A stretch of 64,000 nucleotides of DNA, from positions 124,001-188,000 of the forward strand of contig NZ_JAGOPN010000010.1 of assembly GCF_017991995.1 (NCBI RefSeq), read 5' to 3'. The position numbers and the translations under genes were made by a program. Numbering within the stretch: the first letter of the stretch is position 1; the number at the start of each line of letters is the position of its first letter. The notes under the pieces were generated by a model. The model was given only the letters and a program-made list of their open reading frames with translations. It ran no database searches and was not told the origin of the DNA. Positions 2,133-50,842 of this stretch are shown piece by piece. This stretch comes from Pseudacidovorax sp. Its GTDB lineage: Bacteria; Pseudomonadota; Gammaproteobacteria; Burkholderiales; Burkholderiaceae_C.

Positions 2133-2143
2133 GCTCTTGTCAT

Positions 2144-14695: not shown

Positions 14696-14704
14696 GTCTG
14701 TTCT

Positions 14705-22871: not shown

Positions 22872-23614
22872 CTTTTCGACTACAGCCTCGCCCGCCCTCT
22901 GGTCAGCCGGGCCCAGTGCGAGCCAGCGGCGGCCCCAGGCTCGTCTGGTCCGCACTGTGCGCTGCGCAGGTGGCGGCCCGAAGCGCGCCTCCCAGACTCC
23001 CTCCTCTCTCAAACCCCTGCGCCTGGGCCTCGCCATCCTGCTCGGATTTCTGGCTCGAAATCTTGCACCGCTTTGCCAGAAATTCCGATTCAAATTCACC
23101 GTTTCAATTAATCACGATCAATTGTGAAATTGACCGTGAACAACAAGCGGGAAAAAATATTTGCCTCCTGCGCGCCGACAACATACGCTATGGCGCTCTC
23201 GGATTGAAAGCCGATTTATTCGCTCACCGGGATGCGGGCCGCCAGTTCCATGGCGGATCCCGACGATCCACGAATCAAAAACAATGCGTCTCCGGAGGGG
23301 GCATGAGCCGTCGATCTGCAGTGCTTGAAAGCTGCATCCCACCTCGCCATGAAGCGAGCGTTCTTCCCTGGACAAACACACCCGCCGATACCGGGGCAGG
23401 CACACCTCGGCAAGTCCTGAAAGCGGTACGCATGGCCGCAGCGCCCTGAGTCGCGGGCCCCGATGCCGCTTGGCAGCAGGGCAATTCCTTTTGAATCCAT
23501 TTCGCGCGAGCCATTGCCTTTGCGCCGCGGCTCGGTGTGCCTGCCAATTCAATTTCCCAGCCAATTGATCGGACCCAACGCCAATGTCCGATCTTCACCA
23601 AGGAGATGACACCC
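22872..23614. other. Long non-coding leader upstream of the autotransporter
   Basis: About 740 bases with no convincing gene. The minus-strand frame 23118-23564 has an Arg/Cys-rich translation and no ribosome site, so I do not call it. The part around 23080-23300 is noticeably AT-richer than the flanks and may hold the autotransporter promoter and a long untranslated leader. Confidence 0.5.
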
Positions 23615-26600
23615 ATGGCCCCACATTCAGCAAAGCGCCCGCCGCACCCGGGAAACACGAAATACGCCCTGCGGAAAAAAGTATTCGTGCGGCTGCCAAA
23701 ACGCCTCGCTCTTCCGTTGCTGCTGGCGTCCATCTGGGGGCTGCCAGCCCATGCCGCCGACATCAGCTGGTCAGGCGCCAGCGGCAGCAACTGGTCCACG
23801 GCCGGCAACTGGATCGGCGGCGCGGCCCCCGGCAGCACCGACACGGCCGTGCTCAACGGCACGGGCAGCATCCGGATCGCCGACCAATCGGTCACCCTCA
23901 ATGCCTTCTCGCTGGCCACCAGCCTCGCGGACACGACGCGCCTCACGATCAGCGGCGGTGGCCGCCTGACCGTCGCCCTCGGGGTGATCGGCGCCACGGG
24001 CGGCAGCGGCAGCGTCGTGGTCAGCGGCCCCGGCTCGATGCTGACCAACACCTCGGAAATCACCATCGGCCGCAACGGCACCGGCTCGCTCACCGTCATC
24101 GACGGCGCGCACCTGGTGTCGCGCCGGCTGGCCCTCGGCACGCCGACCTGGGAGGTGGCCGGCGGCACGCCCGCAGGCGGCTCGGGCTCGCTCACCGTGA
24201 GCGGTGCCGGCACGCTGTGGGAGAACACCGCCGGCGTCGACGTCGCGCGCAACGAAAGCCCGGGGTCCACCGGCACCCTGACCATCTCGGACGGTGCCAC
24301 GGCACGCATCCGCAGCACGGGCGTCTACACCGGCGCGGGGGCCACGCTCAACTTCACGGGCGCCGGCACCCGCGTCGAGATCGGCGACCCCACCGACCCC
24401 AACGATCTGCAGGCCACGTCCTCGGGCTGGCTGAGCGCCGATGGCGGCAACATCCAGGTCTCGGGCGGCGCCAGCCTCTACACGAGCGGCACCTACGTCG
24501 GTGCGAGCGGCGCCTGGGCCACCACCATGACCGTGACGGGCCAGGGCACCAGCTTCATCGGCGAGCAGCGCATCTATGTCGGCGGGCAGAACGGCTCGCG
24601 CGACGTCGATCCGGTCAACGGCAATGGCCTGCTGACCATCGCGGACGGCGCCACCGCGTGGGGCGGCACGGTGGGCGTGGGCATGGACCCCCATTCCAAG
24701 GGCGTGGCCGTGGTGACCGGCAACGGCTCGCAGCTCTGGGCCAAGGCCAACACGGCGCTGACCACGCCGACGCGCGGCAACTTCTACGTCGGCTACGCGG
24801 GCGACGCACTGGTCGTGGTCTCGGACGGCGGCACCATCAAGGCCGACAACGAGGTGCGCATCGCCTACGACAGCGGCTTCGGCAAGCTGGTGATCGGCGC
24901 GCAGGAAGGCCAGGCCGCGGCCGCACCCGGCAACGTGATCGCGGCCAACGGCATCGTCTTCGGCGACGGCGCGGGCGAGCTGGTCTTCAACCACACGGGC
25001 ACGGGCCTGCTGTTCGGCAGCACGCTGAGCGGCAACGGCACGCTCAAGGCGCTGGCGGGCACCACGATCCTGAGCGGCGACAGCTCGGCCTTCACGGGCA
25101 GCACCGCTGTCAAGGGTGGCGAGCTGCGGGTCAACGGCTCGCTGGCCGGCTCCGCGGTGACGGTGGGCAGCGGCGCGCGCCTGTCGGGCAACGGCACGGT
25201 GGGCAGCCTGAGCCTGCAGTCCGGTGCCACCGTGGCGCCCGGCAACAGCCCGGGCACGCTCACCGTCGCCGGCAACTACACCCAGGCCGCCGGCTCCACC
25301 TACGAGGCCGAGTTCGTGCCCGGCACCGCCACCTCCGACCGCATCGCCGTCAAGGGCACGGCCCAGATCGCCGATGGTGCCGTGCTGCGGGTCTCGCGCT
25401 ACGGCAGCACGGCGCCCTTCAGCCTCACCGACCGCTACACCGTGCTGACCGCCGACGGCGGCGTCACCGGCCGCTACGTGCTGACCGGCGACACCAGCAT
25501 CTCCACCTTCTACGCCCTCACGACCGGCACCGACGCGGGCAGCGTCTACGTCGCCGCCCAGCAGGTGCGTGCCTTCACCAGCGCGGCGCTCACGGCCAAC
25601 CAGATGACCACGGCCGGCGCGCTGCAGAGCCTGGCCGCCGGCGGCGCCCTGCGCACCGCCATCGGCTACCTGCCGGACGACGCCCAGGCCCGCGTCGCCT
25701 TGGACCAGCTCTCGGGCGAGATCCACGCCTCCCTCCGCGGCGCCATGGTGGAGGACAGCCGCTTCGTGCGCACGGCCGCCATCGACCGGCTGCGCGCCGC
25801 CTCCGGCGCTGCGACCGCGCCGGCGGGCGCCAGTGCCGACGCCAACGGCCTGGCCGTGTGGTCCCACGTCTACGGCACCTGGGGCAAGACGAGCGGCAAC
25901 GGCAATGCCGCCTCGCTCTCGCACGACACGGGTGGCTTCGTCGGCGGTGCGGACCTGCCCGTCTTCGACACGGCCCGGGCCGGCGTGCTGCTGGGCTATG
26001 GCCATGCCTCTTACGACAGCGACGGGCGCAACGCGTCGGGCTCGTCCAACGGCTACACCCTGGGCGCCTACGGCGGCACGCAGGTCGGCGACGTCGGCGT
26101 GCGGCTGGGCACGGCCTACACCTGGAGCGACGTGAGCACCCGCCGCGACGTCGTCTTCAGCGGCCTGGCCAATGGCCTGTCGGCCAAGTACGACGCCCGC
26201 ACCTTCCAGGCCTTCGCCGAGGCGGGCTACCGCATCGACGCCGGCGCGGTGGCGCTCGAGCCCTTCGGCGGCCTGGCGCATGTGGCGGTGCGCACCGACG
26301 GCTTCACCGAGCGCGGCGGCGTGGCGGCCCTGAGCTCCGGCAGCAGCAACACCGACGTCAACTTCTCCACCCTGGGACTGCGCGGCTCGGGCGAGTTCAA
26401 CCTGGGCGGGCGCACCCTGACCGCCAGCGCCTCGCTCGCCTGGCGCCATGCCTTCGGCGACACCACGCCGCAGGCCAGCTTCCGCTTCCTCGGCTCGGAC
26501 GCCTTCGGCGTGAGCGGCGTGCCCATCGCGAAGAACGCCGCCCTCGTCGAGGCCGGCGTGTCCACGCAGATCGCGCGCAATGCCTCGCTGCGCCTGTCCT

Positions 26601-26668
26601 ACACCGGGCAGTTCGGCAGCCACGCCCGCAGCCAGGGCCTGCGCGGCAACCTGGACTTCCGGTTCTGA
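23615..26668 (+). CDS. Type Va autotransporter with repeat-rich passenger
   Basis: Self-secreting surface protein, 1017 residues. The ATG at 23615 is chosen because AAGGAG ends 9 bases upstream. A long signal peptide (charged region KYALRKKVFVRLPKR, then LALPLLLASIWGLPAHA) is of the extended kind seen in large autotransporters. The passenger (about 49-755) is Gly/Ser/Thr-rich beta-helix with units such as GSGSVVVSGPGS, GTGSLTVIDGA and SGSLTVSGAG, then a passenger-associated repeat (LSGNGTLKALAGTTILSG, then SGNGTVGSLSLQSGATVAPGNSPGTLTVAG). The last ~260 residues are the outer-membrane barrel ending in Phe (NLDFRF). The role is probably adhesion or biofilm; no protease triad is visible. Confidence 0.92.
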   Translation: MAPHSAKRPPHPGNTKYALRKKVFVRLPKRLALPLLLASIWGLPAHAADISWSGASGSNWSTAGNWIGGAAPGSTDTAVLNGTGSIRIADQSVTLNAFSLATSLADTTRLTISGGGRLTVALGVIGATGGSGSVVVSGPGSMLTNTSEITIGRNGTGSLTVIDGAHLVSRRLALGTPTWEVAGGTPAGGSGSLTVSGAGTLWENTAGVDVARNESPGSTGTLTISDGATARIRSTGVYTGAGATLNFTGAGTRVEIGDPTDPNDLQATSSGWLSADGGNIQVSGGASLYTSGTYVGASGAWATTMTVTGQGTSFIGEQRIYVGGQNGSRDVDPVNGNGLLTIADGATAWGGTVGVGMDPHSKGVAVVTGNGSQLWAKANTALTTPTRGNFYVGYAGDALVVVSDGGTIKADNEVRIAYDSGFGKLVIGAQEGQAAAAPGNVIAANGIVFGDGAGELVFNHTGTGLLFGSTLSGNGTLKALAGTTILSGDSSAFTGSTAVKGGELRVNGSLAGSAVTVGSGARLSGNGTVGSLSLQSGATVAPGNSPGTLTVAGNYTQAAGSTYEAEFVPGTATSDRIAVKGTAQIADGAVLRVSRYGSTAPFSLTDRYTVLTADGGVTGRYVLTGDTSISTFYALTTGTDAGSVYVAAQQVRAFTSAALTANQMTTAGALQSLAAGGALRTAIGYLPDDAQARVALDQLSGEIHASLRGAMVEDSRFVRTAAIDRLRAASGAATAPAGASADANGLAVWSHVYGTWGKTSGNGNAASLSHDTGGFVGGADLPVFDTARAGVLLGYGHASYDSDGRNASGSSNGYTLGAYGGTQVGDVGVRLGTAYTWSDVSTRRDVVFSGLANGLSAKYDARTFQAFAEAGYRIDAGAVALEPFGGLAHVAVRTDGFTERGGVAALSSGSSNTDVNFSTLGLRGSGEFNLGGRTLTASASLAWRHAFGDTTPQASFRFLGSDAFGVSGVPIAKNAALVEAGVSTQIARNASLRLSYTGQFGSHARSQGLRGNLDFRF

Positions 26669-29027: not shown

Positions 29028-30743
29028 TCAGTCGAACAGGCCCGTCAGCGCCACCCGTGTCACCACGCCCGAGCTGGTCGCGCCCACGCCCACGGTGACG
29101 CTGTAGCGGCCGTCCCGCGTGGTGTGCCGCAGTGAGCCGCCGATGGCGCTCTCGCTGCGGTAGTTGCCCAGGCCCACGGCGTAGCTGGTCTTGCCCGGCA
29201 CGGCGGGCGCGGCCTCCATCGCCGCCACGCCTGCGATGCCCGCGTAGGCACGGCGCGCGTTGTCGTCGATCTGGCTCTGCAGGCGGCTGGCGGCCAGATC
29301 GGTGTAGGCCCGCGCGGCCCCCAGGCTCTGCGCCGCGGCGTTGTCGGCATGCGCGTTGGCCGTGGCCACCCCGTCGCCGACCATGCCCTGCACCTGCCCG
29401 ACGTTGGTGGCGTCGCTGGGCGCGCTGCCCGCAGCCACGCCGGTGATCTGCCGGTTGCCCACGGCCACCTCGCCGCTCGACGACTGCGCGTCGGCCAGGC
29501 CTGCAGCCGCGTAGCCGGACTGCGCGCCCCGCGTGGTCGCGCTGCCCGCACCCAGCGCCACGCTGCCAGCATGGGCCGCCGTGGCATTGGCGCCCAACGC
29601 CAGGGCGTCGTCGGCACTGGCCCGTGCCGCGATGCCGATGGAGACCGCCTGGTTGGCGCGCACATAGGCGCCCGCCTCCGTGCCGATGGCGATGTTGTTG
29701 GCACCGCTCACATTGCGGCCGGCACCACTGCCCTGCGCCAGGTTGCCGTCGCCCACGACACCCTGGCCCGCGCCGGTGCCCAAAGCCTGGTTGCGGTTGC
29801 CCTGCACACCGCCGCCGGCGCCCGTCCCCATGGCCAGGTTGTTGCTGCCCGAGACCTGCGCACCGGCCATGGTGCCCGCCGCCTGGTTGCCCGAGCCGCG
29901 CACGCCGACGCCCGCGTCCTGCCCGGTCGCCAGGTTGTTGCTGCCGTTCACGCCCACGCCCGCGCCGCCGCCGTAGGCCTGGTTTCCGCTGCCCACCACG
30001 TCGCGGCCGGCGTTGCTGCCGTAGGCCTCGTTGTTGCTGCCGGTCACGTTGGTTCCAGCCCAGAAGCCAAGGGCGTTGTTGTAGTCGCCCGTCACGTTCT
30101 GGCCGGCGCTGCGACCCATCGACTGGTTCCAGCCCCCATTGACGTTGGTGCCGGCGTAGTAGCCGATGGCCTGATTGGCGTTCTTGCCCGACACGTTGGA
30201 GCCGGCGCCCTCGCCGACGGCCAGGTTCCAGTTGGTGCCCACGTTGTTGCCGGCGCCATTGCCCAGGGCCTGGTTGTTGCTGCCGGTGACCGTGCGGCCC
30301 GCATTGGTGCCATAGGCGTTGTTGTACGAGCCCGTCACGCCGGTGCCGGCCCAGAAGCCGGTGGCGTTGTTGTAGTTGCCCGTCACGTTCTGGCCAGCGC
30401 TGCGTCCGATGGCCTGGTTCCAGCCGCCCAGCACGCTCTGTCCTGCGTTGAAGCCGATGGCCACGTTGGCATTGCCGCCACTCACGTTGGTGCCCGCGGC
30501 CTCGCCGATGGCCAGGTTCCAGTTGGTGCCGACGCCGTTGCCGGCGCCCTTGCCGATCGTCTGGTTGTTGCTGCCGGTGACGCCGGTCGTGCCGGCGCCG
30601 TCGCCGATGCCCAGGTTTCCCTTGGTCGGGTCCCAGGCCACCGGCTGCGCGGCGGCGAGGCCGCCACCGGCAGCCAGAACCAGGGCCAGGCCCAGCGGAG
30701 CGGCACGGCGCGCCGCGCGCCGTGGGTCGTGTCGCATGTTCAT
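29028..30743 (-). CDS. YadA-like trimeric autotransporter adhesin with 16-residue repeats
   Basis: Trimeric surface adhesin, 571 residues. The ATG at 30743 has a GAGGGG ribosome site; the frame continues open upstream only because it runs through the phospholipase gene in another frame. A signal peptide (LGLALVLAAGGGLAAAQ) leads into ~19 head repeats of 16 residues with consensus V-x-G-x-x-N-x-A-x-G-x-x-A-G, longer than the usual 14. Units 1-6 and 7-12 form a repeated block of ~97 residues. A neck/stalk (ITGVAAGSAPSDATNVGQVQ, then a short coiled coil) and a C-terminal membrane anchor (SYAVGLGNYRSESAIGGSLRH to ALTGLFD) complete it. It follows the phospholipase by 41 bases and is probably co-expressed with it. 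Confidence 0.93.
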   Translation of the reverse strand: MNMRHDPRRAARRAAPLGLALVLAAGGGLAAAQPVAWDPTKGNLGIGDGAGTTGVTGSNNQTIGKGAGNGVGTNWNLAIGEAAGTNVSGGNANVAIGFNAGQSVLGGWNQAIGRSAGQNVTGNYNNATGFWAGTGVTGSYNNAYGTNAGRTVTGSNNQALGNGAGNNVGTNWNLAVGEGAGSNVSGKNANQAIGYYAGTNVNGGWNQSMGRSAGQNVTGDYNNALGFWAGTNVTGSNNEAYGSNAGRDVVGSGNQAYGGGAGVGVNGSNNLATGQDAGVGVRGSGNQAAGTMAGAQVSGSNNLAMGTGAGGGVQGNRNQALGTGAGQGVVGDGNLAQGSGAGRNVSGANNIAIGTEAGAYVRANQAVSIGIAARASADDALALGANATAAHAGSVALGAGSATTRGAQSGYAAAGLADAQSSSGEVAVGNRQITGVAAGSAPSDATNVGQVQGMVGDGVATANAHADNAAAQSLGAARAYTDLAASRLQSQIDDNARRAYAGIAGVAAMEAAPAVPGKTSYAVGLGNYRSESAIGGSLRHTTRDGRYSVTVGVGATSSGVVTRVALTGLFD

Positions 30744-30784
30744 ACGCTGCTTCCCCTCTTGTTCTTCCGACGCGGTGGCCGGCT

Positions 30785-33037
30785 TCAGAGCTTGGCCAAG
30801 TGCAGGGCCATGGCCGGGTCGCTCACGCTGGGCTTGCCGGTCTCGACCCGACCGGCAAAGCGGCGCTCCATGCCGGCGGCGGCGACCGTGAAGTCGTACC
30901 AGCGGCCGCTGCCGTCCAGGTTCCAGTGCAGCATGCCGGTGGCGCCGGGGTCCACGGCCAGCGTCCACGGCCCGTCGTTGCGGTAGGCGTTGGACGTCAC
31001 GGTGACGCTGCCGGCCGCCTTGCCGCCGTTGCGCACCTTGACGTAGACCTGCCCGCCCGCCGGCTCGTAGCAGACCTGCACCTCGGGCTTGAAGCCGGCG
31101 GCGTCCTGGGCGAGCGCATCGCCCTTGAAGGTGCGCACGAAGCCATTGCTGCTGTAGACCCACAGCTCGTACTTGCCGCCATCGGTGGCTCCGGCGTCCC
31201 AGTAATCCGACAGCTGCTTGCCCGCTTCCACGGTGTAGCGACGCGGAATGCGGTCGAGGTGCAGCTTGTCGTAGACATGGAACACGGCGCCCTGGTTGCC
31301 CGTGTTGCTGAAGATCAGCTGCACCATGCCGCGCGACTCCACGCGCGCGCTGGTGTGCAGCTCGTAGGGCAACGCACGCGAGGGACGCGTGCCGGTCTCC
31401 TGGTAGAGCGGCTGCGGCGTGGCCGGCGCCGTGGTCACCGGCGAGGTAGGCAGCAGGCGCTGCGCGGCATTGATGGCCGCGTAGTTGCTGGTGTCGGGCA
31501 GCCTGGGCACCACCGGGTCGTTGGGCGTGGCGAAGTCGAAACACGAGGTCAGGTCGCCGCACACCGCACGGTGCCAGGGGCTGATGGCGTCCACGCTGAT
31601 GCGGAAGCGCTGCTCCAGGAAGCGGGCCACCGAGGTGTGGTCGAACACCTGCGAGTTGACCCAGCCACCCTTGCTCCAGGGCGAGACCACGTACATCGGC
31701 ACACGCGAGCTCAGGCCCCAGGGGCGGGTCTTGCCGCTGGTGGTGTCCTCGGCCTTGAGGTAGCTGCCGACCGAGGCGTCGAAGTACTCGCCCTCCAGCG
31801 ACACGGTGGACTTGCCCATCAGATTGCCACTGGCGTCGTACGACGGCACGGCGGGCATGGCCGCGTGGTCGAAGAAGCCATCGTTCTCGTCGAAGGTGAC
31901 GAACAGCACCGTCTTGCTCCACACGGCCGGATTGGCGGTGAGCGCGTCCAGCACATCGGCGATGAAGTCGGCCGCGCCGGCCACACCCTCGCTGCTGCCC
32001 GGGTGCTCGGCCAGGGCCTGCGTGGGCAGCACCCACGAGACCTGCGGCAGCGTGTTGTTGATCACGTCCTGCCTGAGCTGGGCCAGGAAGTTGGTCGCGC
32101 CATCGGCGGTGGCCGGGCCGCCCGTGAGGCCGTGCTCGTAGATGGGCGAGCCCGGCTGCGCGGTGCGGAAGCTCTGGAAGGCCAGGCAGCCGTGCATGGC
32201 GCCGGTCCAGTTGTTGTTCATGTTCTGGTAGATGTGCCAGCTGATGCCGGCCCGCTGCAGCACGTCGGGGAGCGTGTCCCATTTGAAGGCGGTGTTGACG
32301 TACTTGTAGTTGTAGGCGCCCGTTCCGGGATCGACCTGGCCGGAGCCGTCCGCCTGCTGCGCGCGGCCGGCGACCCAGTTGGAGGGACTGGGCCAGCAGC
32401 GCGAGTTGACGGGCTCCGAATCGGCATCGGTGCTGTTGATGCCCTTCTTGCGCAGCTCCGGATTGAAGTTGGAGCCCGACCAGAAAATGATCCGGTTGGG
32501 ATCGGTGCCGGTGAGGATGGAGCAGTGGTAGCCATCGCACAGCGTGAAGGCATCGGCCAGCGCGAACTGGAACGGGATGTCGTCGCGCAGGTAGTAGCCC
32601 ATCGTGGCCTGGTTCTTGAACTGGATCCAGCGGTCCATCTTTCCCTGGTTCCAGGCGGCCTGCTGGTCGGGAAAGTTGTGCGGCGTGCCCGAGCCGATCA
32701 GCGCATTGGCGATGCGCGAGTCGCGACGGAAGGGTGGGATGTCCGCGCCGCCGCTCGGGTTGGGTTGGTAGAACACCGGCTTGCCGGTGGACAGCGGCAG
32801 CGGGAAGCGGTCGCCGAAGCCGCGCACCCCGCGCAGGGTGCCGAAGTAATGGTCGAAGCTGCGGTTCTCCTGCATCAGGATGACGATGTGCTTGACGTCA
32901 TCGATGGTGCCCTTGTCGACAGCGGCCTCGACGGCCAGGGCCTTGCGGATGGCGGGCGGCAGCACGCTCAGGGCCGAGGCCGCGCCGAGCGCGCCGGCCG
33001 ACTTGCGGAAGAAATCGCGACGGGAAGAGGAGTTCAT
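30785..33037 (-). CDS. Tat-exported phosphocholine-type phospholipase C
   Basis: Secreted phospholipase C of the acid-phosphatase-like superfamily, 750 residues, typical of Pseudomonas PlcH/PlcN and Burkholderia enzymes; it should release phosphocholine (or a similar head group) from phospholipid. The N-terminus SRRDFFRKSAGALGAASAL is a twin-arginine signal. The catalytic core starts with KHIVILMQENRSFDHYFGTLRG; EN is the metal/nucleophile region of the family. Further core motifs are SILTGTDPNR and FVTFDENDGFFDHAAMP. Two C-terminal beta domains follow (about 560-735). Whether it is haemolytic cannot be told. A small lipoprotein gene precedes it and a YadA-like adhesin follows on the same strand. 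Confidence 0.93.
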   Translation of the reverse strand: MNSSSRRDFFRKSAGALGAASALSVLPPAIRKALAVEAAVDKGTIDDVKHIVILMQENRSFDHYFGTLRGVRGFGDRFPLPLSTGKPVFYQPNPSGGADIPPFRRDSRIANALIGSGTPHNFPDQQAAWNQGKMDRWIQFKNQATMGYYLRDDIPFQFALADAFTLCDGYHCSILTGTDPNRIIFWSGSNFNPELRKKGINSTDADSEPVNSRCWPSPSNWVAGRAQQADGSGQVDPGTGAYNYKYVNTAFKWDTLPDVLQRAGISWHIYQNMNNNWTGAMHGCLAFQSFRTAQPGSPIYEHGLTGGPATADGATNFLAQLRQDVINNTLPQVSWVLPTQALAEHPGSSEGVAGAADFIADVLDALTANPAVWSKTVLFVTFDENDGFFDHAAMPAVPSYDASGNLMGKSTVSLEGEYFDASVGSYLKAEDTTSGKTRPWGLSSRVPMYVVSPWSKGGWVNSQVFDHTSVARFLEQRFRISVDAISPWHRAVCGDLTSCFDFATPNDPVVPRLPDTSNYAAINAAQRLLPTSPVTTAPATPQPLYQETGTRPSRALPYELHTSARVESRGMVQLIFSNTGNQGAVFHVYDKLHLDRIPRRYTVEAGKQLSDYWDAGATDGGKYELWVYSSNGFVRTFKGDALAQDAAGFKPEVQVCYEPAGGQVYVKVRNGGKAAGSVTVTSNAYRNDGPWTLAVDPGATGMLHWNLDGSGRWYDFTVAAAGMERRFAGRVETGKPSVSDPAMALHLAKL

Positions 33038-33098
33038 GGGGTTCTTTCAACGCCAGGGACGACAGGGGGTTCGGTGAAGAAGGCGGTGCGCCGGGGGC

Positions 33099-33311
33099 TC
33101 AGGGCGCGCACTTGAGCGCAGGCTCGGCGGCCGTGCCGCCGCCCGCGGCGGGCGGTGTGCCACCGCCACTGCCGTTGCCGGCCGGCGCACCCTGCCCGGG
33201 CAGGAAGGCCAGGCCGCCACCACCGCCGCTGCCACCGCCGCAGGCGCCGAGGGTCAGGCACAGGAGAAGGCCCGCCGCAGCGAGGCCGTACCGGGAAGAT
33301 GCTGTCTTCAT
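33099..33311 (-). CDS. Small Gly-rich lipoprotein
   Basis: A predicted 70-residue lipoprotein with AAAGG ribosome site 6 bases before the ATG at 33311. The signal MKTASSRYGLAAAGLLLCLTLGAC has a lipobox (LGAC), and the mature part is almost entirely Gly/Ala/Pro (GGGSGGGGGLAFLPGQG) ending EPALKCAP. No family is recognised. It lies 61 bases upstream of the phospholipase on the same strand and may be co-transcribed. Because the sequence is low in complexity it could be a decayed remnant of a longer lipoprotein, but the intact start, lipobox and stop favour a real small gene. Confidence 0.6.
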   Translation of the reverse strand: MKTASSRYGLAAAGLLLCLTLGACGGGSGGGGGLAFLPGQGAPAGNGSGGGTPPAAGGGTAAEPALKCAP

Positions 33312-33499
33312 GGGGTTTCCTTTGGATCGAAGGACACGAGGGGAGAAGGAGGCGCGCGCAGGGCGCGGCCAGGGCCGATCCGCAGGGCCGGGCAGGCCAC
33401 GCGGCATCGGGCGGACGGGGGAAGCGGAAGGTGGGGTACGCCGGCGCGCTGGCAGACGCGCGTCACGGCGCATCACGGCGGCCGGCGCGGGATCAGGGC

Positions 33500-34537
33500 T
33501 CAGCCATAGCGGCTGCGCAGCCGGGCTGCGACGCGGTCGAGCAGGAGCACGGTCAGGAAGATCGCGATCAGGATCGTCCCGACGTGCGCGTAGTTGTACA
33601 TGTCATAGCGGCCCTTGAGCTCCTGCCCGATGCCGCCGGCGCCCACCAGGCCCACCACGGTGGCCATGCGCACGTTGCGGTCCAGCACGTAGAGCGTGTA
33701 GGCGATGAAGCCCGGCATCACCTGCGGCAGCACGGCAAAGCGCATCACCGCCAGCGGGCCGGCGCCAATGGCACGCAGCGCTTCCTGCGGGCGGTCGTCG
33801 GCGGTCTCGATGTCCTCGGCGTAGAACTTGCCGAGGAAGCCGGCCGCGTGCAGGGCCAACGCCAGCACGCCGGCGATGGGACCGAAGCCGTAGGCCAGCA
33901 CCAGGAAGAGCGCACTCACCAGCTCGGGGACCGCGCGCAGCAGGCCGACCACGGCCCGCGCAGCGCCGTAGACAAGCCGGTTGGGCGCGTAGTTGCGGGC
34001 GCTGCACCAGGCCAGCGGCGCGCTCAGCACGATGGCGATCAACGTGGCCCAGGCGGCGATCTCGAAGGTCTCCAGCATCTTGGCCGCCACATGCCACAGG
34101 TAGCCCAGCGGCTCGACCAGCACCTCCTGGCGCACCACCCGGTCCTCCATGGCGAGGGTCTGCGGATTGAGCCGCGGCTCGTGCATCTCCACGGTCTCGA
34201 TGTGCGAAAGCCAGGGCAGCTGCTGGCGATCGAAGCCCTCGATGCGGGCGACTTCGGTGCGCTCGGAAATCTGCGGCGGAAAGAGCGAGCGGGCGATGGT
34301 GCCCAGCCCGTTCAGCACCTGCGACTGCTCGCGCAGGCCGACGGCGGCGAGCATGCCTTCGCCGGTGAGCGAGAGCATCCGGCCCAGTTCCACACGCTGC
34401 CCGGCCCAGAGCCCGCCGGCGAGCACCAGCGCCAGGACCAGCAGCGTGCGCAGGCCGAAGGGCTGCGGCAGGGCCCACTGCGCCGCGGGGCGCACGGGCG
34501 CCTGCGCGCCTGTCGCGAGGGATGCGGGGAGGGTCAT
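33500..34537 (-). CDS. phnE: PhnE-type phosphonate/phosphate-ester ABC permease
   Basis: Inner-membrane permease of a PhnDCE-type importer, 345 residues from the ATG at 34537, which overlaps the phnC stop (ATGA). The frame stays open upstream only as a shadow of phnC. One N-terminal helix (about 30-47) is followed by an unusually long ~90-residue loop (LFPPQISERTEVARIEGF to VEPLGYLWHV) before the conserved permease domain, whose coupling motif lies around EALRAIGAGPLAVMRFAVLPQVMPGF. Usual PhnE proteins are ~260-290 residues, and the loop accounts for the extra length. The substrate is not readable; PhnDCE homologues import phosphonates, phosphite or phosphate esters. Confidence 0.9.
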   Translation of the reverse strand: MTLPASLATGAQAPVRPAAQWALPQPFGLRTLLVLALVLAGGLWAGQRVELGRMLSLTGEGMLAAVGLREQSQVLNGLGTIARSLFPPQISERTEVARIEGFDRQQLPWLSHIETVEMHEPRLNPQTLAMEDRVVRQEVLVEPLGYLWHVAAKMLETFEIAAWATLIAIVLSAPLAWCSARNYAPNRLVYGAARAVVGLLRAVPELVSALFLVLAYGFGPIAGVLALALHAAGFLGKFYAEDIETADDRPQEALRAIGAGPLAVMRFAVLPQVMPGFIAYTLYVLDRNVRMATVVGLVGAGGIGQELKGRYDMYNYAHVGTILIAIFLTVLLLDRVAARLRSRYG

Positions 34538-35379
34538 GGCGCAAGCTCCAGAAGACCGACCGGCAACGCGGGCTGCGGCGCCGGCGACAGGGCCGGCGCA
34601 GGGGACGCGCAACTGCCTGCCGCCACCCCGGTCGCAGGAGGCGCGTCGGCGGCGCGCCCGTACACCGCCTCGAAGGCGCCCTGCCCGAAGGCCTGCGGCA
34701 CGCCGTCGAACACCACGCGGCCCCGGCGCAGCGCCACGATGCGGTCGGCGAACTCGCGCGCCAGATCGAGTTGATGCAGGCTGCACAGCACGGTGGCGCG
34801 GCGCTCGCGCGCCTGCCGGCGCAGCAGGTCGAGCACCTCGTGGCTGGTCTGCGGATCGAGGCTGGCGACCGGCTCGTCGGCCAGGACCAGCGGCGGATCG
34901 CGCATGAAGGCGCGCGCGATGCCCACGCGCTGTTGCTGCCCGCCAGAGAGTTCGCTCACCCGGCGCAGCAGATGCTCCTCGCCGAGGCCGACGGCCTCGA
35001 TCAGCGCACAGGCCTTGCGCCTGGCCTCTTCGGTGAACAGCCCCGGCAGCATGCGCCAGAGCGGCATGGCCGGCAGCGCGCCGCACAGCACGTTCTGCGC
35101 CACCGTGGCCCGCGCCACCAGGTTGAACTGCTGGTGGATCATGCCGATGCACGGACGCAGGCGGGCCAGGTTGCGCGGCACCACTGGCGTGCCTTGCACC
35201 CGCACCTCGCCCACGGTGGGCCGGGCCAGGCCGTTGACCGTGCGCAGCAGCGTGGACTTGCCCGCACCCGACGCCCCCAGCACCACGCAGAACTGGCCGG
35301 CGGGCACGTCGAGCGAGACACCGTCCAGCGCCCGGGTGCCATCGGCGTGGCGCAGGGCGACCGAGTCGAAGCACAGCAT
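34534..35379 (-). CDS. phnC: PhnC-type ABC transporter ATPase
   Basis: ATP-binding subunit of the PhnDCE importer, 281 residues. Walker A GASGAGKSTLLR, Q-loop around MIHQQFNLV, signature LSGGQQQRVGIARAF, Walker B PLVLADEPVASLD and the switch His in CSLHQLD are all present. The start MLCFDSVALRH at 35379 is the conserved one. It is followed by phnE with a 4-base overlap and preceded by phnD with a 44-base gap. The last ~45 residues (DAPPATGVAAG to LLELAP) are a Pro/Ala tail beyond the normal end of PhnC. Confidence 0.93.
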   Translation of the reverse strand: MLCFDSVALRHADGTRALDGVSLDVPAGQFCVVLGASGAGKSTLLRTVNGLARPTVGEVRVQGTPVVPRNLARLRPCIGMIHQQFNLVARATVAQNVLCGALPAMPLWRMLPGLFTEEARRKACALIEAVGLGEEHLLRRVSELSGGQQQRVGIARAFMRDPPLVLADEPVASLDPQTSHEVLDLLRRQARERRATVLCSLHQLDLAREFADRIVALRRGRVVFDGVPQAFGQGAFEAVYGRAADAPPATGVAAGSCASPAPALSPAPQPALPVGLLELAP

Positions 35380-35423
35380 GGGTGGGCCTTCGGCAGCGTG
35401 GATCGTGGTGCGGGTGCCGAGGC

Positions 35424-36359
35424 TCAACGCTCGGCGGCCTTGGCGAGGATGCGGCCCTTGAGGTCGTCGGTCAGCAGGCCCAGCTTCTCGGCCGCCACAT
35501 TGAACTCGTCCTCCGAGAAGCGGGTGTCGTAGCCGTCGATGCGTGCGCCGCCGTAGCCGCGGATCATTTCCGGCGTCACGCCCGGCGCCTTGTTGACGGT
35601 CTGGAAGGCCTCCTTGAGCCGGGTCTTCATCGCCTCTGGCAGGCGGGCGTTGAGGGCCAGCGGCGGATAGGGAATGGCCATGCTGCGGGCGACGACCTTG
35701 ATGGTCTTCGGATCGACGGCGCCTTGCTTGACCGCCTTCTCGTAGGAATCGAAGGAGAGCGAGGCCACGTCCACTTGGCCCTGGACCAGCGCCGCCAGGC
35801 TGCTGGCATGGCTGCCGGTCATGCGGATGGCGGCCAGGTCGCGCGCCGGATCGATGCCCGCATCCAGCAGCATCGCAACCTGGAAGGTGAAGCTGGAGGC
35901 CGAGTTGACGTCGCCGAAGGCCACGCGCCGGCCCTTGACGTCCGCGATGGTGGCGATGGGCGCATCGGCCTTCGCGAACATGCCGGCGTAGTAGACCGAG
36001 GCGCCCTTCTCCACGCCCACGGCCAGCAGCTGCGCGCAGCCGCGCTTGTGGGCCTGCACGTACGACACCGGCCCGAAGAAGGCGATGTCGGCCAGCTGGT
36101 TGCACATGCCCTCCACCACGGCACCGTAGGACTGGCCCACCTTGAGGTCGAAGTTCAGGCCGGTGGCCCGGCTCACGGCGTTGAAGACCGGCGCGTAGTC
36201 GGCCTTGGTGCCCGATTCGGTGCCGCCATCCGCGGGAATCAGCAGCACGCGCAGCGGATGCTCGCGCGAGCCGTCGGCGACGGTCTGCGCGGCCGACGGC
36301 AGTGCCAGCACGGCGGTGAGCGAGACGGCGGCGGCCGCGAGGGCCAGGAGCTTCTTCAT
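35424..36359 (-). CDS. phnD: PhnD-type periplasmic binding protein
   Basis: Exported substrate-binding protein of the PhnDCE importer, 311 residues. Signal peptide KKLLALAAAAVSLTAVLALPSAAQ, then PLRVLLIPADGGTESGTKADYAPVFNAVSRATGL, DIAFFGPVSYV (the conserved GP loop contacting the phosphonate) and GDVNSASSFTFQ. The last segment corresponds to the PhnD G-D-x-x-S-x-S-G site, here with Ala/Ser changes, so ligand preference may differ from classical phosphonates. It is the first gene of the minus-strand run; two TGA-N7-CTCA sites lie in its upstream region shared with the HAD phosphatase gene. Confidence 0.92.
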   Translation of the reverse strand: MKKLLALAAAAVSLTAVLALPSAAQTVADGSREHPLRVLLIPADGGTESGTKADYAPVFNAVSRATGLNFDLKVGQSYGAVVEGMCNQLADIAFFGPVSYVQAHKRGCAQLLAVGVEKGASVYYAGMFAKADAPIATIADVKGRRVAFGDVNSASSFTFQVAMLLDAGIDPARDLAAIRMTGSHASSLAALVQGQVDVASLSFDSYEKAVKQGAVDPKTIKVVARSMAIPYPPLALNARLPEAMKTRLKEAFQTVNKAPGVTPEMIRGYGGARIDGYDTRFSEDEFNVAAEKLGLLTDDLKGRILAKAAER

Positions 36360-36445
36360 GGTGGATTCCTTCGTTGCTGAGGCGGGGACGAGGGCCGGTG
36401 CCGCTCGGATGCCGGTGAGCTTAGGAAGCCAAGATGACAGGCAAA

Positions 36446-36491
36446 TGAAATAAGCTCATTTCAGTCAATGCCAGATACTGAGCTTTACTCA
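36446..36491. promoter_or_regulatory. Two candidate operators in the phnD / HAD divergent promoter
   Basis: TGAAATAAGCTCA (36446-36458) and TGAGCTTTACTCA (36479-36491) both fit TGA-N7-CTCA and lie 33 bases apart, about three helical turns. The first is also part of a wider palindrome AAATGA-N7-TCATTT (36444-36462). The MurR/RpiR regulator encoded next door is the obvious candidate to bind here. Confidence 0.55.
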
Positions 36492-36546
36492 ATAGAATCG
36501 CGCCCCACGCCGGCGCCCTGCCCGCCGGCCAACTGCCCTGCGATTC

Positions 36547-37377
36547 ATGAACACCTTCGCTTCCCTCGCCCGCCCGCCGCGGCACCCCCTGCAGAAGACG
36601 GGCGCTTACGTCCGCGACGCGCTGGCACGGGCCGACCACCTGCTGCTGGACCTCGACGGCACGCTGGTGCGGCAGAACGAAGCCATCGACGGCGCCGCCG
36701 AGCTGCTCGCGCGCTTCGAGGGCCGCTTCGCCATCGTCTCCAACAACTCCACGCACACGGCCCAGGGCCTGTCGCTGCGCCTGCGGCGGCTGGGCCTGCG
36801 GGTGCCGCCCGCGCGCATCGTGCTGGCCGGCGAAGGCGCCGTGGACCTGCTGGCACGGCAGCAACCCGGCGCGCATGTGATGGTGGTGGGCAGCGCGGCC
36901 CTGCAGCGGCTCGCGGCGGGCCGTGGCTTGCGGCCTGTGGGCACGGGGGCCGACGTGGTGCTGCTGGCGCTGGACCTGCGTTTCAGCCATGCCCGGCTGT
37001 CCGCCGTGGTGCACGAGCTGCGTGGAGGCGCCCGCCTGCTGGTGGCCAATGCCGACACCAGCCATCCGGGTCCGCAGGGCCGGCTGGTGCCGGAAACAGG
37101 CGCGCTGCTGGCCGCCGTGGTGGCCGCCAGCGGCGTGCGGCCCTGGCGCGTCGTGGGCAAGCCCGAGCCGCTTCTCTTCGAGCAGGGGCTGCGCTGCCTG
37201 GGCGCCGATCCGGCCCGCACGCTGGTGGTGGGCGACAACCCGGCCACCGACGCCGCCGGTGCGGCCCGGCTGGGCCTGGCCTGCCTGCTGGTGGGGGATG
37301 CGCCCGGCGCCCACGCCGCCTCCGTGGCACAGCTGGCGGCCCCGCCAGCGGCGCCGGTGCAGCTCAGTAGCGCTTGA
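36547..37377 (+). CDS. HAD-IIA (NagD-like) phosphatase
   Basis: Cytoplasmic HAD phosphatase, 276 residues. Motif I is LLLDLDGTLV, motif II VSNNST, motif III around VVGKPEPLLFEQ and motif IV VVGDNPATDAAGA; the C2 cap between motifs II and III defines the NagD/PGP (IIA) class, which dephosphorylates small phosphate esters. Divergent from phnD with a shared regulatory region, it probably removes phosphate from whatever PhnDCE brings in. It ends 14 bases inside the convergent regulator gene. Confidence 0.9.
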   Translation: MNTFASLARPPRHPLQKTGAYVRDALARADHLLLDLDGTLVRQNEAIDGAAELLARFEGRFAIVSNNSTHTAQGLSLRLRRLGLRVPPARIVLAGEGAVDLLARQQPGAHVMVVGSAALQRLAAGRGLRPVGTGADVVLLALDLRFSHARLSAVVHELRGGARLLVANADTSHPGPQGRLVPETGALLAAVVAASGVRPWRVVGKPEPLLFEQGLRCLGADPARTLVVGDNPATDAAGAARLGLACLLVGDAPGAHAASVAQLAAPPAAPVQLSSA

Positions 37378-38287
37378 TCGACAGCACGTCGAAGGTCTGG
37401 CGCAGGGTGCGCACGGCGGTGTCGTAGTCCGACAGCGCCAGGCACGCGATCAGCACATCGATGATGGCCAGTTGCGCAAGCCGGCTGGTCATGGCCTCGG
37501 TGCGGAAATGGGTCTCGCGTGCCATGGTGAACAGCACCACGTCGGCGAAGGCCTGCAGCGGCGACTTGCCGAAGTTGGTGATGCACACGGTAGAGGCGCC
37601 CGCCTCCTTGGCCAGCCGCGTGGCCGTCACCGTCTCGTGCGTGCTGCCCGAATGCGAGATGGTCAGCACCGCCACCTTCGCATCGGTGAGCGAGGCGCAG
37701 ATCGCCTGCACATGCGAGTCGACCACCACCTTGGCATTCAGGCCGATGCGCAGCATGCGGTAGTGCGCATCCTCGGCAATGGTGGCCGAGCTGCCGATGC
37801 CGTAGATCTCGATGCGCTCGGCCTGGCGCAATAGCCTGACCGCACGCTCCAGCGCCGCCGCGTCGAGCGAGGCCTGGGTGTCGTGCAGCGTCTGGATGTT
37901 GCTCTGGAAGATCTTGCGGATCACGGCCGCCGCCGTGTCCTGCGGGTCGAGGTCCTCATGGATGAACTGCACCGGCCGCACGATCTCCTGCGCCAGGGCG
38001 ATCTTGACCTGCTGGAAGCCGGTGGCGCCCAGGTTCTTGCACAGGCCCACCACGCTGCCTTCGCTGGAGCCGGTTCGCTCGGCCACCTCGCTCACCGACA
38101 TGTGCACCACCTCGCGCGGATGGTTGGCGATGAAGCTGGCGATGCGCTGCCCCACCGGCCCGAGCGAGGACCACAGCGTCTCGATGCGCGCGAGCACCGC
38201 CAGGGCCTGCCCGCCGGCTGCGACCGGCTGGGGCGCAGGCGCAGGGGTCTTGGCGTTGGACGGTCGGGCGGGGCTGCTGCGCTTCAT
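37364..38287 (-). CDS. MurR/RpiR-family transcriptional regulator
   Basis: A 307-residue regulator with an N-terminal helix-turn-helix (MSVSEVAERTGSSEGSVVGLCKNLGATGFQQVKIAL) and a C-terminal SIS phosphosugar-binding domain (IYGIGSSATIAEDAHYRMLRIGL, then TISHSGSTHETVTATRLAKEAGASTVCITN). The SIS domain implies an effector that is a phosphorylated small molecule, which fits control of the adjacent PhnDCE/HAD genes. The first ~25 residues are a Pro/Ala extension. Its 3' end overlaps the HAD gene by 14 bases. Confidence 0.92.
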   Translation of the reverse strand: MKRSSPARPSNAKTPAPAPQPVAAGGQALAVLARIETLWSSLGPVGQRIASFIANHPREVVHMSVSEVAERTGSSEGSVVGLCKNLGATGFQQVKIALAQEIVRPVQFIHEDLDPQDTAAAVIRKIFQSNIQTLHDTQASLDAAALERAVRLLRQAERIEIYGIGSSATIAEDAHYRMLRIGLNAKVVVDSHVQAICASLTDAKVAVLTISHSGSTHETVTATRLAKEAGASTVCITNFGKSPLQAFADVVLFTMARETHFRTEAMTSRLAQLAIIDVLIACLALSDYDTAVRTLRQTFDVLSIKRY

Positions 38288-46746: not shown

Positions 46747-49368
<2,622 letters not shown>

Positions 49369-49397
49369 GGTGGTGAAAAACCTCCGGGTTGACGGGG

Positions 49398-49425
49398 AGA
49401 TTGGGCTGGCCGCGGACGATTCAAG
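49398..49425 (-). promoter_or_regulatory. Sigma-32 heat-shock promoter of clpB
   Basis: On the minus strand CTTGAAT (49425-49419), a 13-base spacer and CCCAATCT (49405-49398) match the heat-shock consensus CTTGAAA-N13/14-CCCCATnT closely. It lies 30 bases before the clpB start, fitting a short leader. Heat-shock control of clpB is established in proteobacteria. Confidence 0.85.
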
Positions 49426-49467
49426 ACCAGCGCGGGCACATCTCTTGCGTTGGCTCAAACCTCTCAC

Positions 49468-49495
49468 ATGATCCATTGGTGAAACCATGGATCAT
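49468..49495. repeat. Near-perfect inverted repeat between clpB and the Bug gene
   Basis: ATGATCCATTGGT and ACCATGGATCAT around a 3-base centre (GAA) pair over 12 bases with one bulged T. It lies upstream of both divergent genes. It may be a hairpin in the Bug-gene leader or an operator. Confidence 0.5.
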
Positions 49496-49567
49496 TCCTT
49501 CAACAAACGAGTCGGTCCCCTGCCCCTGTTGCGGGTACGCTCGCTTTTTTCCTCGGAGTTCTGCCCC

Positions 49568-50557
49568 ATGTCCCTGCCTTCTGTCTTTCGTCCGGGCCTG
49601 ATGCGCCGCACCTTCGCACTGGGCGCGCTGCTGGTCGCCGCCGGTCTGGCCCAGGCCCAGTCGACCGGTCCGATCCGCCTGCTGGTCGGTTTCCCGGCCG
49701 GTGCCGGCACCGACGCGCTGGCCCGCACCATCGCCGACAAGCTCAAGGACGAGCTGGGCGCTCCCGTGGTGGTGGAGAACCGCGCCGGCGCGGGCGGACA
49801 GATCGCCGCGCAGTACCTGAAGACCGCGCCGGCCGACGGCCACGTCTTCTTCGTGTCGCACGACCACACGATCTCGATCCTGCCGGCCGTGACCAAGAAC
49901 CCCGGCTTCAACCCCGCGGCCGACTTCACGCCCGTGGCCGGCATCGCCACCTTTTCCAACGTGCTGGCCGTCTCGGGCGGCACGCCCGCCAAGACGATCC
50001 AGGAATACGTCCAGTGGGTGAAGACCAAGAAGGACGGCAAGGACTCCATCGGCGTGCCCGCGCCGGGTTCGATCCCGGTCTTCCTGACGCAGCTGATCGG
50101 CAAGAAGTACGGCATCGACGTGCAGGCCGCACCCTACCGCGGCGGCGCGCCCCTGCTGGCCGACATGATGGGCAACCAGATCGCCGCCGGCATCGCGGGC
50201 GTGCCCGACCTGATGGAACTGCAGCGCACCGGCAAGGTCCGCGTGGTGGCCGCCATCGGCGCCAAGCGCGATCCGCTGCTGCCGCAGGTGCCGACCTTCA
50301 CAGAACTGGGCTTCGAGAACCTCGACGACTATCCCTGGTATGGCGTCTTCGCTCCCGTGGGCACGCCCCAGCCGGTCATCGACAAGTTCAGCGCGGCGCT
50401 GCAGAAAGTGCTGGCGCAGCCCGAGACCAAGAAGAAGCTGGTCGACATGGGCCTGCATGTGAACTACGAGCCGCAGGGCCAGTTCGCCGGCCGCGTCCGC
50501 AGCTACACCCAGACCTGGGAACGCATCATCAAGGACAGCGGCTTCCAGCCCCAGTGA
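49568..50557 (+). CDS. Bug-family (TctC) periplasmic solute-binding protein
   Basis: Exported binding protein, 329 residues from the ATG at 49568 with GGAG upstream; the open frame 27 codons further has no signal peptide. Signal MRRTFALGALLVAAGLAQAQ preceded by ~11 residues. Core motifs PIRLLVGFPAGAGTDALAR and VVVENRAGAGGQIAAQYLKTAPADGH are standard for the family. No TctAB membrane partners are nearby; the ligand is unknown. A terminator closes the gene. Confidence 0.92.
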   Translation: MSLPSVFRPGLMRRTFALGALLVAAGLAQAQSTGPIRLLVGFPAGAGTDALARTIADKLKDELGAPVVVENRAGAGGQIAAQYLKTAPADGHVFFVSHDHTISILPAVTKNPGFNPAADFTPVAGIATFSNVLAVSGGTPAKTIQEYVQWVKTKKDGKDSIGVPAPGSIPVFLTQLIGKKYGIDVQAAPYRGGAPLLADMMGNQIAAGIAGVPDLMELQRTGKVRVVAAIGAKRDPLLPQVPTFTELGFENLDDYPWYGVFAPVGTPQPVIDKFSAALQKVLAQPETKKKLVDMGLHVNYEPQGQFAGRVRSYTQTWERIIKDSGFQPQ

Positions 50558-50594
50558 GCCGGTGGGCCGCCCTGGCGCGGCCGACGTCCCACTT

Positions 50595-50624
50595 GCCCCG
50601 CGGCTTCCGGTCCCGGGGCTTTTT
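50595..50624 (+). terminator. Rho-independent terminator after the Bug gene
   Basis: GCCCCG / CGGGGC stem with inner pairing, followed by TTTTT, 38 bases after the stop codon. Confidence 0.8.
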
Positions 50625-50758
50625 CATGTCCGCCCTCGGACGGGACGGCCGCGGGCTGCCGGGCACGCCCACCGATGCACGGGGAATGTGTCCGGCCCGT
50701 CTGCCAAAGCCGAGTGCAGCCCGCGCCACTCGTCGCGCCTTGAAAACCGCTCGTCGGA

Positions 50759-50820
50759 AATGTTAATAAACGTCAACCGAAAGCGTTAACACCCGCCCGG
50801 CTCCACGTTAAGTTCGAGGA
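50759..50820 (+). promoter_or_regulatory. Three phased GTTAA repeats upstream of the minor pilin operon (LytTR-like)
   Basis: GTTAA occurs at 50762, 50785 and 50807, that is every 22-23 bases, on the same strand. The 9-mers AATGTTAAT, AGCGTTAAC and CACGTTAAG approximate the known LytTR half-site (direct repeats about 21-22 bases apart). In Pseudomonas the LytTR regulator AlgR activates the equivalent fimU-pilVWXY1Y2E operon, so an AlgR/FimR-type regulator is a reasonable guess. Confidence 0.55.
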
Positions 50821-50842
50821 ATATTGCATTTGTTTGCAATAT
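50821..50842 (+). promoter_or_regulatory. Hairpin covering the pilE start codon
   Basis: ATATTGCA (50821-50828) pairs perfectly with TGCAATAT (50835-50842), and the second arm includes the first two bases of the pilE ATG. The only ribosome site, GAGGA, lies just before the hairpin, ~20 bases from the ATG. The structure could gate translation or bring the two signals together. Confidence 0.5.

What the first reader, a model, noticed from the sequence alone, without database searches (positions are those of the whole stretch)
29028..38287. Phospholipase C - lipoprotein - PhnDCE - HAD phosphatase - RpiR locus ending in a YadA-like adhesin
Six genes run on one strand: PhnD, PhnC, PhnE, a tiny lipoprotein, a Tat-exported phospholipase C and a trimeric adhesin. 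A HAD-IIA phosphatase and a phosphosugar-type (SIS-domain) regulator adjoin. The arrangement reads as one pathway: attach to or coat a surface, release a phosphorylated head group from lipid, import it through PhnDCE, and strip the phosphate inside. PhnDCE is normally assigned to phosphonates, but no C-P lyase or phosphonatase is present, so the ligand may be a phosphate ester such as phosphocholine or glycerophosphoryl compounds. The pathway as a unit is inference; the gene identities are well supported.
Basis: partly seen in the sequence, partly recalled or inferred. Interest (0 to 1): 0.72.

Follow-up and report, generated by a model that had tools for sequence, protein, structure and literature searches.

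The report
Phospholipid head-group scavenging gene cluster
A soil-type bacterium carries a gene set that appears to cut the phosphate-bearing head off membrane lipids, import it whole and take the phosphate inside; the same set with the same double control switch recurs across distant proteobacteria, which makes an open question about head-group uptake testable.

Summary
The genes are as described. The window lies in a Pseudacidovorax-like genome. Of the best 80 (of 149) relatives of this PhnD in species genomes, 10 sit in C-P lyase loci and have no PLC, HAD or RpiR homologue. Among the other 70, PLC is linked in 59, HAD in 62, RpiR in 65 and all three in 52, from Burkholderiales to Sphingomonadales and Caulobacterales, in seven gene orders. 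So PLC-PhnDCE-HAD-RpiR is a real module. The YadA protein is not core (22 of 59 PLC loci).

New here: a rigid composite DNA element, an RpiR-type palindrome fused to a Pho box (TGAR-N5-YTCA-N5-CTGTCAY), is present in 62 of 70 loci, mostly before phnD or a TonB-receptor gene, and in none of 10 C-P lyase loci. Any other tested spacing between palindrome and Pho half-site gives 0-3 hits. A tiny lipoprotein ending in LxCAP precedes PLC in 28 of 29 Burkholderiales-type loci.

Best reading: phosphate starvation plus a substrate signal switch on lipid head-group release, intact import and cytoplasmic dephosphorylation. The ligand is probably phosphocholine or phosphoethanolamine; this is inferred. 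The 2025 transporter GpxB shows that this binding-protein family can carry phosphate esters.

The parts
37364..38287 (-). RpiR/MurR-type regulator (HTH_6 + SIS phosphosugar-binding domain)
   Evidence: PF01418 and PF01380; linked in 65 of 70 non-C-P-lyase loci
36547..37377 (+). probably cytoplasmic HAD-IIA phosphatase, tail-to-tail with RpiR
   Evidence: TIGR01460 112 bits; D35, D37, S65, K205, D230, D235 invariant in 23 aligned sequences; linked in 62 of 70
36477..36493 (.). second RpiR-type palindrome (ACTGAGCTTTACTCAAT)
36434..36460 (-). composite element: RpiR-type palindrome (36444-36460) fused to a Pho box (36434-36451); core TGAGCTTATTTCATTTGCCTGTCAT at 36434-36458
35424..36359 (-). PhnD-type periplasmic binding protein
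   Evidence: TIGR01098, PF12974; model pLDDT 91.4, best-ranked solved folds PtxB/HtxB
34534..35379 (-). PhnC-type ATPase
   Evidence: TIGR02315 260.5 bits, just under cut-off
33500..34537 (-). PhnE-type permease (overlaps phnC by 4 bases)
   Evidence: TIGR01097 250 bits
33099..33311 (-). 70-aa lipoprotein with Gly/Pro-rich linker and C-terminal LKCAP
   Evidence: a like lipoprotein in 29 of 29 Burkholderiales-type loci with phnE and PLC, CAP ending in 28 of 29; another copy before a different PLC of the same genome
30785..33037 (-). phosphocholine-specific phospholipase C with twin-arginine signal
   Evidence: TIGR03396 890 bits; linked in 59 of 70; tree
29028..30743 (-). YadA-like trimeric autotransporter, lineage-specific passenger
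   Evidence: NF033481 C-terminus; homologues with PF03895; after PLC on the same strand in 22 of 59 PLC loci

Best explanation
The locus is a phospholipid head-group scavenging module. A Tat-exported phosphocholine-type phospholipase C releases the phosphorylated head group from lipid outside the cytoplasm. A PhnD-type binding protein with the PhnCE permease imports that head group intact, most likely phosphocholine and/or phosphoethanolamine. The cytoplasmic HAD-IIA phosphatase frees phosphate. Expression is gated twice at one composite site in the shared HAD-phnD promoter region: PhoB at the Pho box (phosphate starvation) and the RpiR protein at the overlapping palindrome (a phosphorylated ligand, perhaps the imported head group, acting through the SIS domain). 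Shown by sequence here: gene identities, conserved linkage, conserved composite element. Inferred: ligand, direction of RpiR control, HAD substrate, binding of PhoB and of RpiR to the element.
For: Linkage of PLC, HAD and RpiR to this PhnDCE in 59, 62 and 65 of 70 loci, all three in 52, against 0 of 10 C-P lyase-linked relatives; seven gene orders hold all six genes. Apart from the long-branch L048, the linked PLCs in the tree lie on one side and the two other PC-PLCs of the same genome on the other (93/93, just under the starred level). Composite element in 62 of 70 loci, 73 hits, 0 of 10 C-P lyase loci; other palindrome-to-Pho spacers 0-3 hits; 30 block-shuffled patterns mean 0.27. In the own genome the plain Pho pattern with up to 2 mismatches has 12 sites against 0 for the reversed pattern; three lie beside ppk or between a PstS-like gene and ppx, a positive control, one is this site, eight were not assigned. 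HAD shows no signal peptide by eye, so the ester must reach the cytoplasm. Pocket: the acid that binds the amine in E. coli PhnD (E177) is kept as D/E in 71 of 71 (D204 here), while GpxB, which binds glycerol phosphate, has Arg there. GpxB shows that the family can take a phosphate ester (PMC12718374: abstract, sections 5 and 7, passages of 8). In Caulobacter crescentus a phospholipase C and TonB receptors are in the published PhoB regulon (PMC11208175, passages).
Against: No binding, transport or expression data. C-P lyase-linked relatives (PhnD 54-61% identical) share the acid and P232, so the pocket alone does not separate phosphonate from phosphate ester; a few positions such as Y231, A154 and L201 differ in frequency. 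11 of 70 loci show no PLC: five lie on contigs or loci of 7.9-17.3 kb, six have 19.5-20.9 kb; four of the 11 carry a PhoD-cluster gene. Four Sphingopyxis-type loci have RpiR and PLC but no detectable HAD. No BetA above cut-off in the own genome, so the fate of choline is unclear. Pho-box scores reach 11 of 14 in only 21 of 40 of the remaining (mainly alphaproteobacterial) loci before phnD. E. coli PhnCDE takes up inorganic phosphate and marine PhnD1 is proposed to (PMC6469041 abstract; PMC10284923 passages).
Confidence: 0.62

Rival explanations
1. PhnDCE imports inorganic phosphate (or phosphite) freed outside, as E. coli PhnCDE can and marine PhnD1 is proposed to; PLC is only an upstream source of phosphorus and the HAD does something else.
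For: Published phosphate uptake by PhnCDE (PMC6469041, abstract); PhnD1 authors propose phosphate transport and phospholipid recycling with a predicted phospholipase encoded beside phnDCE (PMC10284923, passages). Pho boxes fit a phosphate importer.
Against: The phosphite cap (Tyr208/Tyr206 with Asp22/Asp13; PMC5700983, passages) is absent: P232 and A43 in 71 of 71. The HAD phosphatase linked in 62 of 70 loci shows no signal peptide where looked at by eye. RpiR control suggests an organic phosphate signal (inference).
Confidence: 0.13
2. PhnDCE imports a phosphonate, such as 2-aminoethylphosphonate from phosphonolipids cut by PLC, for the PhnX of this genome.
For: Genome holds PhnX; PhnD relatives 54-61% identical sit in C-P lyase loci; the acidic E177 position is kept.
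Against: PhnX lies on another contig near its own putative 2-AEP binding protein phnS2, 501 bits. No PhnJ match in the genome. None of the 10 C-P lyase loci has the PLC, HAD or RpiR genes or the composite element. HAD-IIA is a phosphatase family, not the phosphonatase family (recalled).
Confidence: 0.1
3. The ligand is glycerol phosphate or another non-cationic phosphate ester and the PLC acts on lipids other than phosphatidylcholine.
For: GpxB precedent; solved HAD-IIA relatives include glycerol-3-phosphate phosphatases, among pyridoxal phosphatases, NagD and others.
Against: GpxB tail-binding residues Arg223/Thr247 are replaced by D204/P232. All 20 PLCs of A2, 18 of them linked, match the phosphocholine-specific PLC model at E<=1e-20 (the call gives no per-member comparison with the cut-off).
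Confidence: 0.1

Closest known systems
GpxB G1P/G3P ABC transporter (PhnT family), Phaeobacter and Marinobacter, PMC12718374
   Same: PhnD-type binding protein of an ABC transporter for a lipid-derived phosphate ester
   Different: tail-binding Arg223/Thr247 replaced by D204/P232; the words phospholipase and phosphatase do not occur in the main text; only remote similarity (profile E 3.6e-11; 16% identity over the structural alignment)
E. coli PhnCDE (C-P lyase-linked phosphonate transporter)
   Same: same three-part transporter; most phosphorus-head residues and an acid at the E177 position kept
   Different: no PhnJ in this genome; cap residue D205 is Pro and the middle Thr of STS is Ala; linked to PLC, HAD and RpiR
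Phaeobacter head-group pathway with PhoX, EtoX and BetT, PMC10132767 (abstract and passages)
   Same: uses phosphocholine and phosphoethanolamine as phosphorus source, with PhoB control
   Different: there phosphate is removed outside the cell and the dephosphorylated amine is imported; intact import was left open
Pho-regulated PLCs of pseudomonads (PlcH/PlcN), recalled, not fetched
   Same: exported phosphocholine-type PLC, phosphate-starvation control (recalled)
   Different: phosphocholine is dephosphorylated by a periplasmic phosphatase there; no PhnDCE-HAD-RpiR linkage (recalled)

Membership tests
PhnT-family phosphonate/phosphate-ester importer (PhnDCE) | PhnD-type binding protein, ATPase and permease together | tested here: met
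PhnT-family phosphonate/phosphate-ester importer (PhnDCE) | S-x-S...H residues that bind the phosphorus head | tested here: met
   S153, S155, H184, Y78 invariant in 81 of 81; the middle residue (T in E. coli PhnD and PtxB) is A in this protein
C-P lyase-type phosphonate transporter | linked C-P lyase or phosphonatase genes | tested here: not met
   none in the locus; no PhnJ match in the genome; PhnX elsewhere near another transporter gene
Phosphite transporter PtxB / marine PhnD1 | capping Tyr (Y208/Y206) with Asp partner | tested here: not met
   P232 and A43 at those columns
GpxB glycerol-phosphate transporter | Arg223/Thr247 tail-binding pair | tested here: not met
   D204/P232, by way of the published correspondence with E177/D205; no direct alignment to 9lf9 was seen
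Phosphocholine-specific phospholipase C (TIGR03396) | score above curated cut-off | tested here: met
   890 against 580 bits
Phosphocholine-specific phospholipase C (TIGR03396) | hydrolysis of phosphatidylcholine | not testable with these tools
   needs enzyme assay
HAD-IIA phosphatase | family model and HAD catalytic residues | tested here: met
   TIGR01460 112 against 100 bits; D35, D37, S65, K205, D230
Pho regulon | PhoB binding site (two 7-mers, 11-bp period) before the operon | tested here: met
   12 of 14 consensus positions, none of 100 mononucleotide shuffles as good; pst/ppk/ppx positive control. Consensus recalled; a match is not proof of binding
Pho regulon | induction under phosphate starvation through PhoB | not testable with these tools
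   no expression data
Trimeric autotransporter (YadA-like) | YadA anchor domain | tested here: inconclusive
   window protein: NF033481 C-terminus at 5.6e-13 but no PF03895 at E<=1; homologues in L033 and L038 pass PF03895

The most novel reading that the evidence does not exclude
A first dedicated importer of intact phosphocholine/phosphoethanolamine in bacteria: a PhnD subfamily that carries lipid head groups, with an RpiR protein that senses the imported phosphorylated head group and competes or cooperates with PhoB on one fused operator, so that lipid scavenging starts only when phosphate is short and lipid head groups are present.
Probability: 0.4. Interest if true: 0.78.

Novelty: new variant of a known kind. 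Interest (0 to 1): 0.62.

Why it matters
[quoted passage not shown] This module names candidate genes, a ligand prediction and a regulatory switch in widespread, partly cultured bacteria, so the question can be put to one binding assay and one deletion. It also warns that some 'phosphonate transporter' annotations (this PhnD subfamily) may be phosphate-ester importers, which would bias estimates of phosphonate cycling from metagenomes.

Tried and rejected
Rejected: YadA as a core part (22 of 59 PLC loci, absent from the near-identical L008). Rejected: phosphite cap and GpxB-type pocket. Tried with little use: pattern search of the composite element without mismatch in 399 genomes of the order: 4 genomes matched, namely the own genome, one of the same family and two whose sites look GC-rich and unlike the family; they were not looked into. 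Cluster c33 near PhoD/TonB: three members scanned, no Pfam match, possibly a false reading frame. HAD in the four Sphingopyxis-type loci was not found in the few open frames scanned (from L065, L074 and L077); L074 has an AraC-type regulator there. The promoter scan found nothing and the terminator scan was at chance level. Choline oxidation: three BetA-model relatives, all below cut-off. Rows dropped: the PLC tree left out 3 of 59 PLC loci (L019, L034, L069; too short after translation). Only the best 80 of 149 PhnD relatives were kept by the tool. An early scan of the autotransporter at 23537 used a wrong frame; repeated rightly.

Not in print: searches of the open PMC library gave no listed title or abstract start that describes PLC-PhnDCE-HAD-RpiR or the fused operator. 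One search listed 15 of 64 papers and 15 of 141; subscription papers and preprints were not covered.
Full report
Setting. The window is contig C31, bases 124001-188000, of a 6.24-Mb genome. The twelve proteins compared are 86-99% identical to those of Pseudacidovorax L007 and L008 (best segments; L008 lacks the YadA gene). No tRNA and no Rfam family at gathering threshold were found in the 64 kb.

Observation. phnC and phnE overlap by 4 bases; the phnD-phnC, phnE-lipoprotein, lipoprotein-PLC and PLC-yadA gaps are 44, 188, 61 and 41 bases. HAD runs the other way, shares a 187-base intergenic region with phnD, and its end overlaps that of rpiR by 14 bases. No terminator-like site was found between phnE and PLC (the scan as a whole was at chance level), so one transcript is possible but not shown.

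Linkage. A scan of one genome per species gave 149 relatives of PhnD, of which the best 80 were kept as loci of up to 20.9 kb. I set ten apart as C-P lyase loci: they share a gene set not seen in the others, whose PhnI-type cluster occurs in 8 of the 10; in one of them (L083) PhnI and a GntR/UTRA regulator were confirmed. With bit-score thresholds on tblastn hits those ten have PhnC and PhnE but no PLC, HAD or RpiR. In the other 70, PLC is found in 59, HAD in 62, RpiR in 65 and all three in 52; among the 49 of these with at least 20 kb, PLC in 44, HAD in 44, RpiR in 48, all three in 40. PLC lies a median 357 bases from PhnD or PhnE (maximum 6133). Seven gene orders hold all six genes; HAD and RpiR are tail-to-tail in 58 of 61 loci with both (head-to-head in three Asticcacaulis). 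Related species are not independent, but the spread over Comamonadaceae, Alcaligenaceae, Sphingomonadales and Caulobacterales with rearranged order argues for selection. In the PLC tree (59 rows: window, 56 loci, two other PC-PLCs of the own genome) the linked PLCs, except the long-branch L048, lie apart from the two own paralogues (93/93, just under the starred level).

What varies. YadA-like proteins follow PLC on the same strand in 22 loci, all in the Burkholderiales-type set L007-L038; the gap is 27-227 bases except in L034, where PLC is split. 7 of the 29 PLC loci of that set lack it (L008, L009, L019, L024, L025, L029, L031; L019 is truncated). A TonB-receptor family occurs in 33 other loci (one member identified), with two further TonB clusters. 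A PhoD-phosphatase cluster occurs in 7 loci, four of them without PLC (two members identified). L032, without PLC, has a metallophosphoesterase/LamG protein after phnE; the first of the two tandem PLCs elsewhere in the own genome also follows a LamG protein.

The lipoprotein. Between phnE and PLC a small lipoprotein occurs in 29 of 29 Burkholderiales-type loci that have both genes; in 28 it has 53-73 residues and ends in LxCAP, in L025 it ends in LSWAP. The own genome has another, ending in MRCAP, directly before an unlinked PC-PLC on contig C20. It therefore seems to travel with PC-PLC rather than with PhnDCE; the alphaproteobacterial loci gave no such match. A role in PLC folding, anchoring or export is a guess.

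The regulatory element. The HAD-phnD region holds two palindromes TGAR-N5-YTCA; with the W-N flanks the genome has 10 such sites in 6.24 Mb, these two among them, against 5 for the reversed pattern. One overlaps a Pho box, ATTTCATTTGCCTGTCAT (12 of 14 positions of the recalled consensus; none of 100 mononucleotide shuffles as good). Before phnD the best score reaches 11 of 14 in 28 of 29 Burkholderiales-type loci, in 21 of 40 of the remaining non-C-P-lyase loci and in 0 of 10 C-P lyase loci (L022 too short to score). The fused pattern TGAR-N5-YTCA-N5-CTGTCAY with at most one mismatch occurs 73 times in 62 of the 70 loci, never in the 10 C-P lyase loci; with any other spacer from 0 to 12 between palindrome and half-site there are 0-3 hits, with other inner spacers (2-9) 0-9, and 30 block-shuffled patterns average 0.27 hits. 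Where a downstream gene could be assigned, hits lie before phnD (or the frame called there) in the Burkholderiales-type loci and before a TonB-receptor gene, phnD or, once, PLC in the others. As a positive control, the plain Pho pattern with up to two mismatches has 12 sites in the own genome (reversed pattern 0): three next to ppk or between a PstS-like gene and ppx, one here, eight unassigned, some inside open frames and perhaps chance. That RpiR binds the palindrome is inferred from co-occurrence, symmetry and the family.

Ligand. PhnD was modelled well (pLDDT 91.4); the best-ranked solved folds are PtxB, HtxB and ArrX, further down E. coli PhnD and GpxB. By alignment to E. coli PhnD the amine-binding E177 corresponds to D204 and D205 to P232. 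The acid is kept in 71 of 71 (61 D, 10 E), P232 in 71 of 71, Y231 in 59 of 71 (Q in 7 of 10 C-P lyase-linked). The phosphite cap is missing. In GpxB the two positions are Arg223 and Thr247, which hold the glycerol hydroxyls. So a cationic tail is expected rather than glycerol; this is inference. Together with a phosphocholine-type PLC and a phosphatase without signal peptide it points to phosphocholine or phosphoethanolamine. The C-P lyase-linked relatives share most of the pocket, so an aminophosphonate cannot be excluded on sequence; but this genome has no PhnJ and its PhnX has a phnS2-type binding protein near by.

Literature. GpxB (PMC12718374: abstract, sections 5 and 7, passages) shows that a PhnD-family protein can take a lipid-derived phosphate ester. 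PMC10132767 (abstract, passages) shows extracellular dephosphorylation in Phaeobacter and leaves intact head-group import open. In Caulobacter crescentus a phospholipase C and several TonB receptors are in the PhoB regulon (PMC11208175, passages). Pocket residues of phosphite proteins are from PMC5700983 (passages). No listed title or abstract start from nine searches described this module; two of the searches were capped (see Tried and rejected).

Verdict. The module is a new variant of a known transporter kind with a fused PhoB/RpiR-type operator that my searches did not find described. Its ligand is the open point.

Noticed in passing
window 33099-33311; L087 1243 onward (G000 C20): Tiny lipoprotein family with lipobox CGG, Gly/Pro-rich linker and C-terminal CAP that accompanies PC-PLC genes in two genomic settings.
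   Followed up: partly
G000 C20 about 69500-76500 (L117): Two further PC-PLC genes in tandem, the first after a LamG-domain protein, the second after a CAP lipoprotein; no fused operator found there.
   Followed up: partly
window 2126-2143: A Pho-box-like site (GTGTCATGCTCTTGTCAT) elsewhere in the same window; target gene not settled.
   Followed up: no
L034 about 13083-15500: The PLC reading frame in this Achromobacter locus is split; described only.
   Followed up: no
L032 12911-16561: Metallophosphoesterase/LamG protein follows phnE in a locus without PLC, a possible replacement for the head-group releasing enzyme.
   Followed up: partly
window 23537-26668: Large classical autotransporter (PF03797 beta-domain, E 1.7e-65) a little downstream of the YadA-like gene, on the other strand.
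   Followed up: partly
G000 C5 about 47000-54400 (L131): Separate 2-aminoethylphosphonate locus: Phn-HD oxygenase, phnS2, FAD oxidoreductase TIGR03364 and PhnX.
   Followed up: partly
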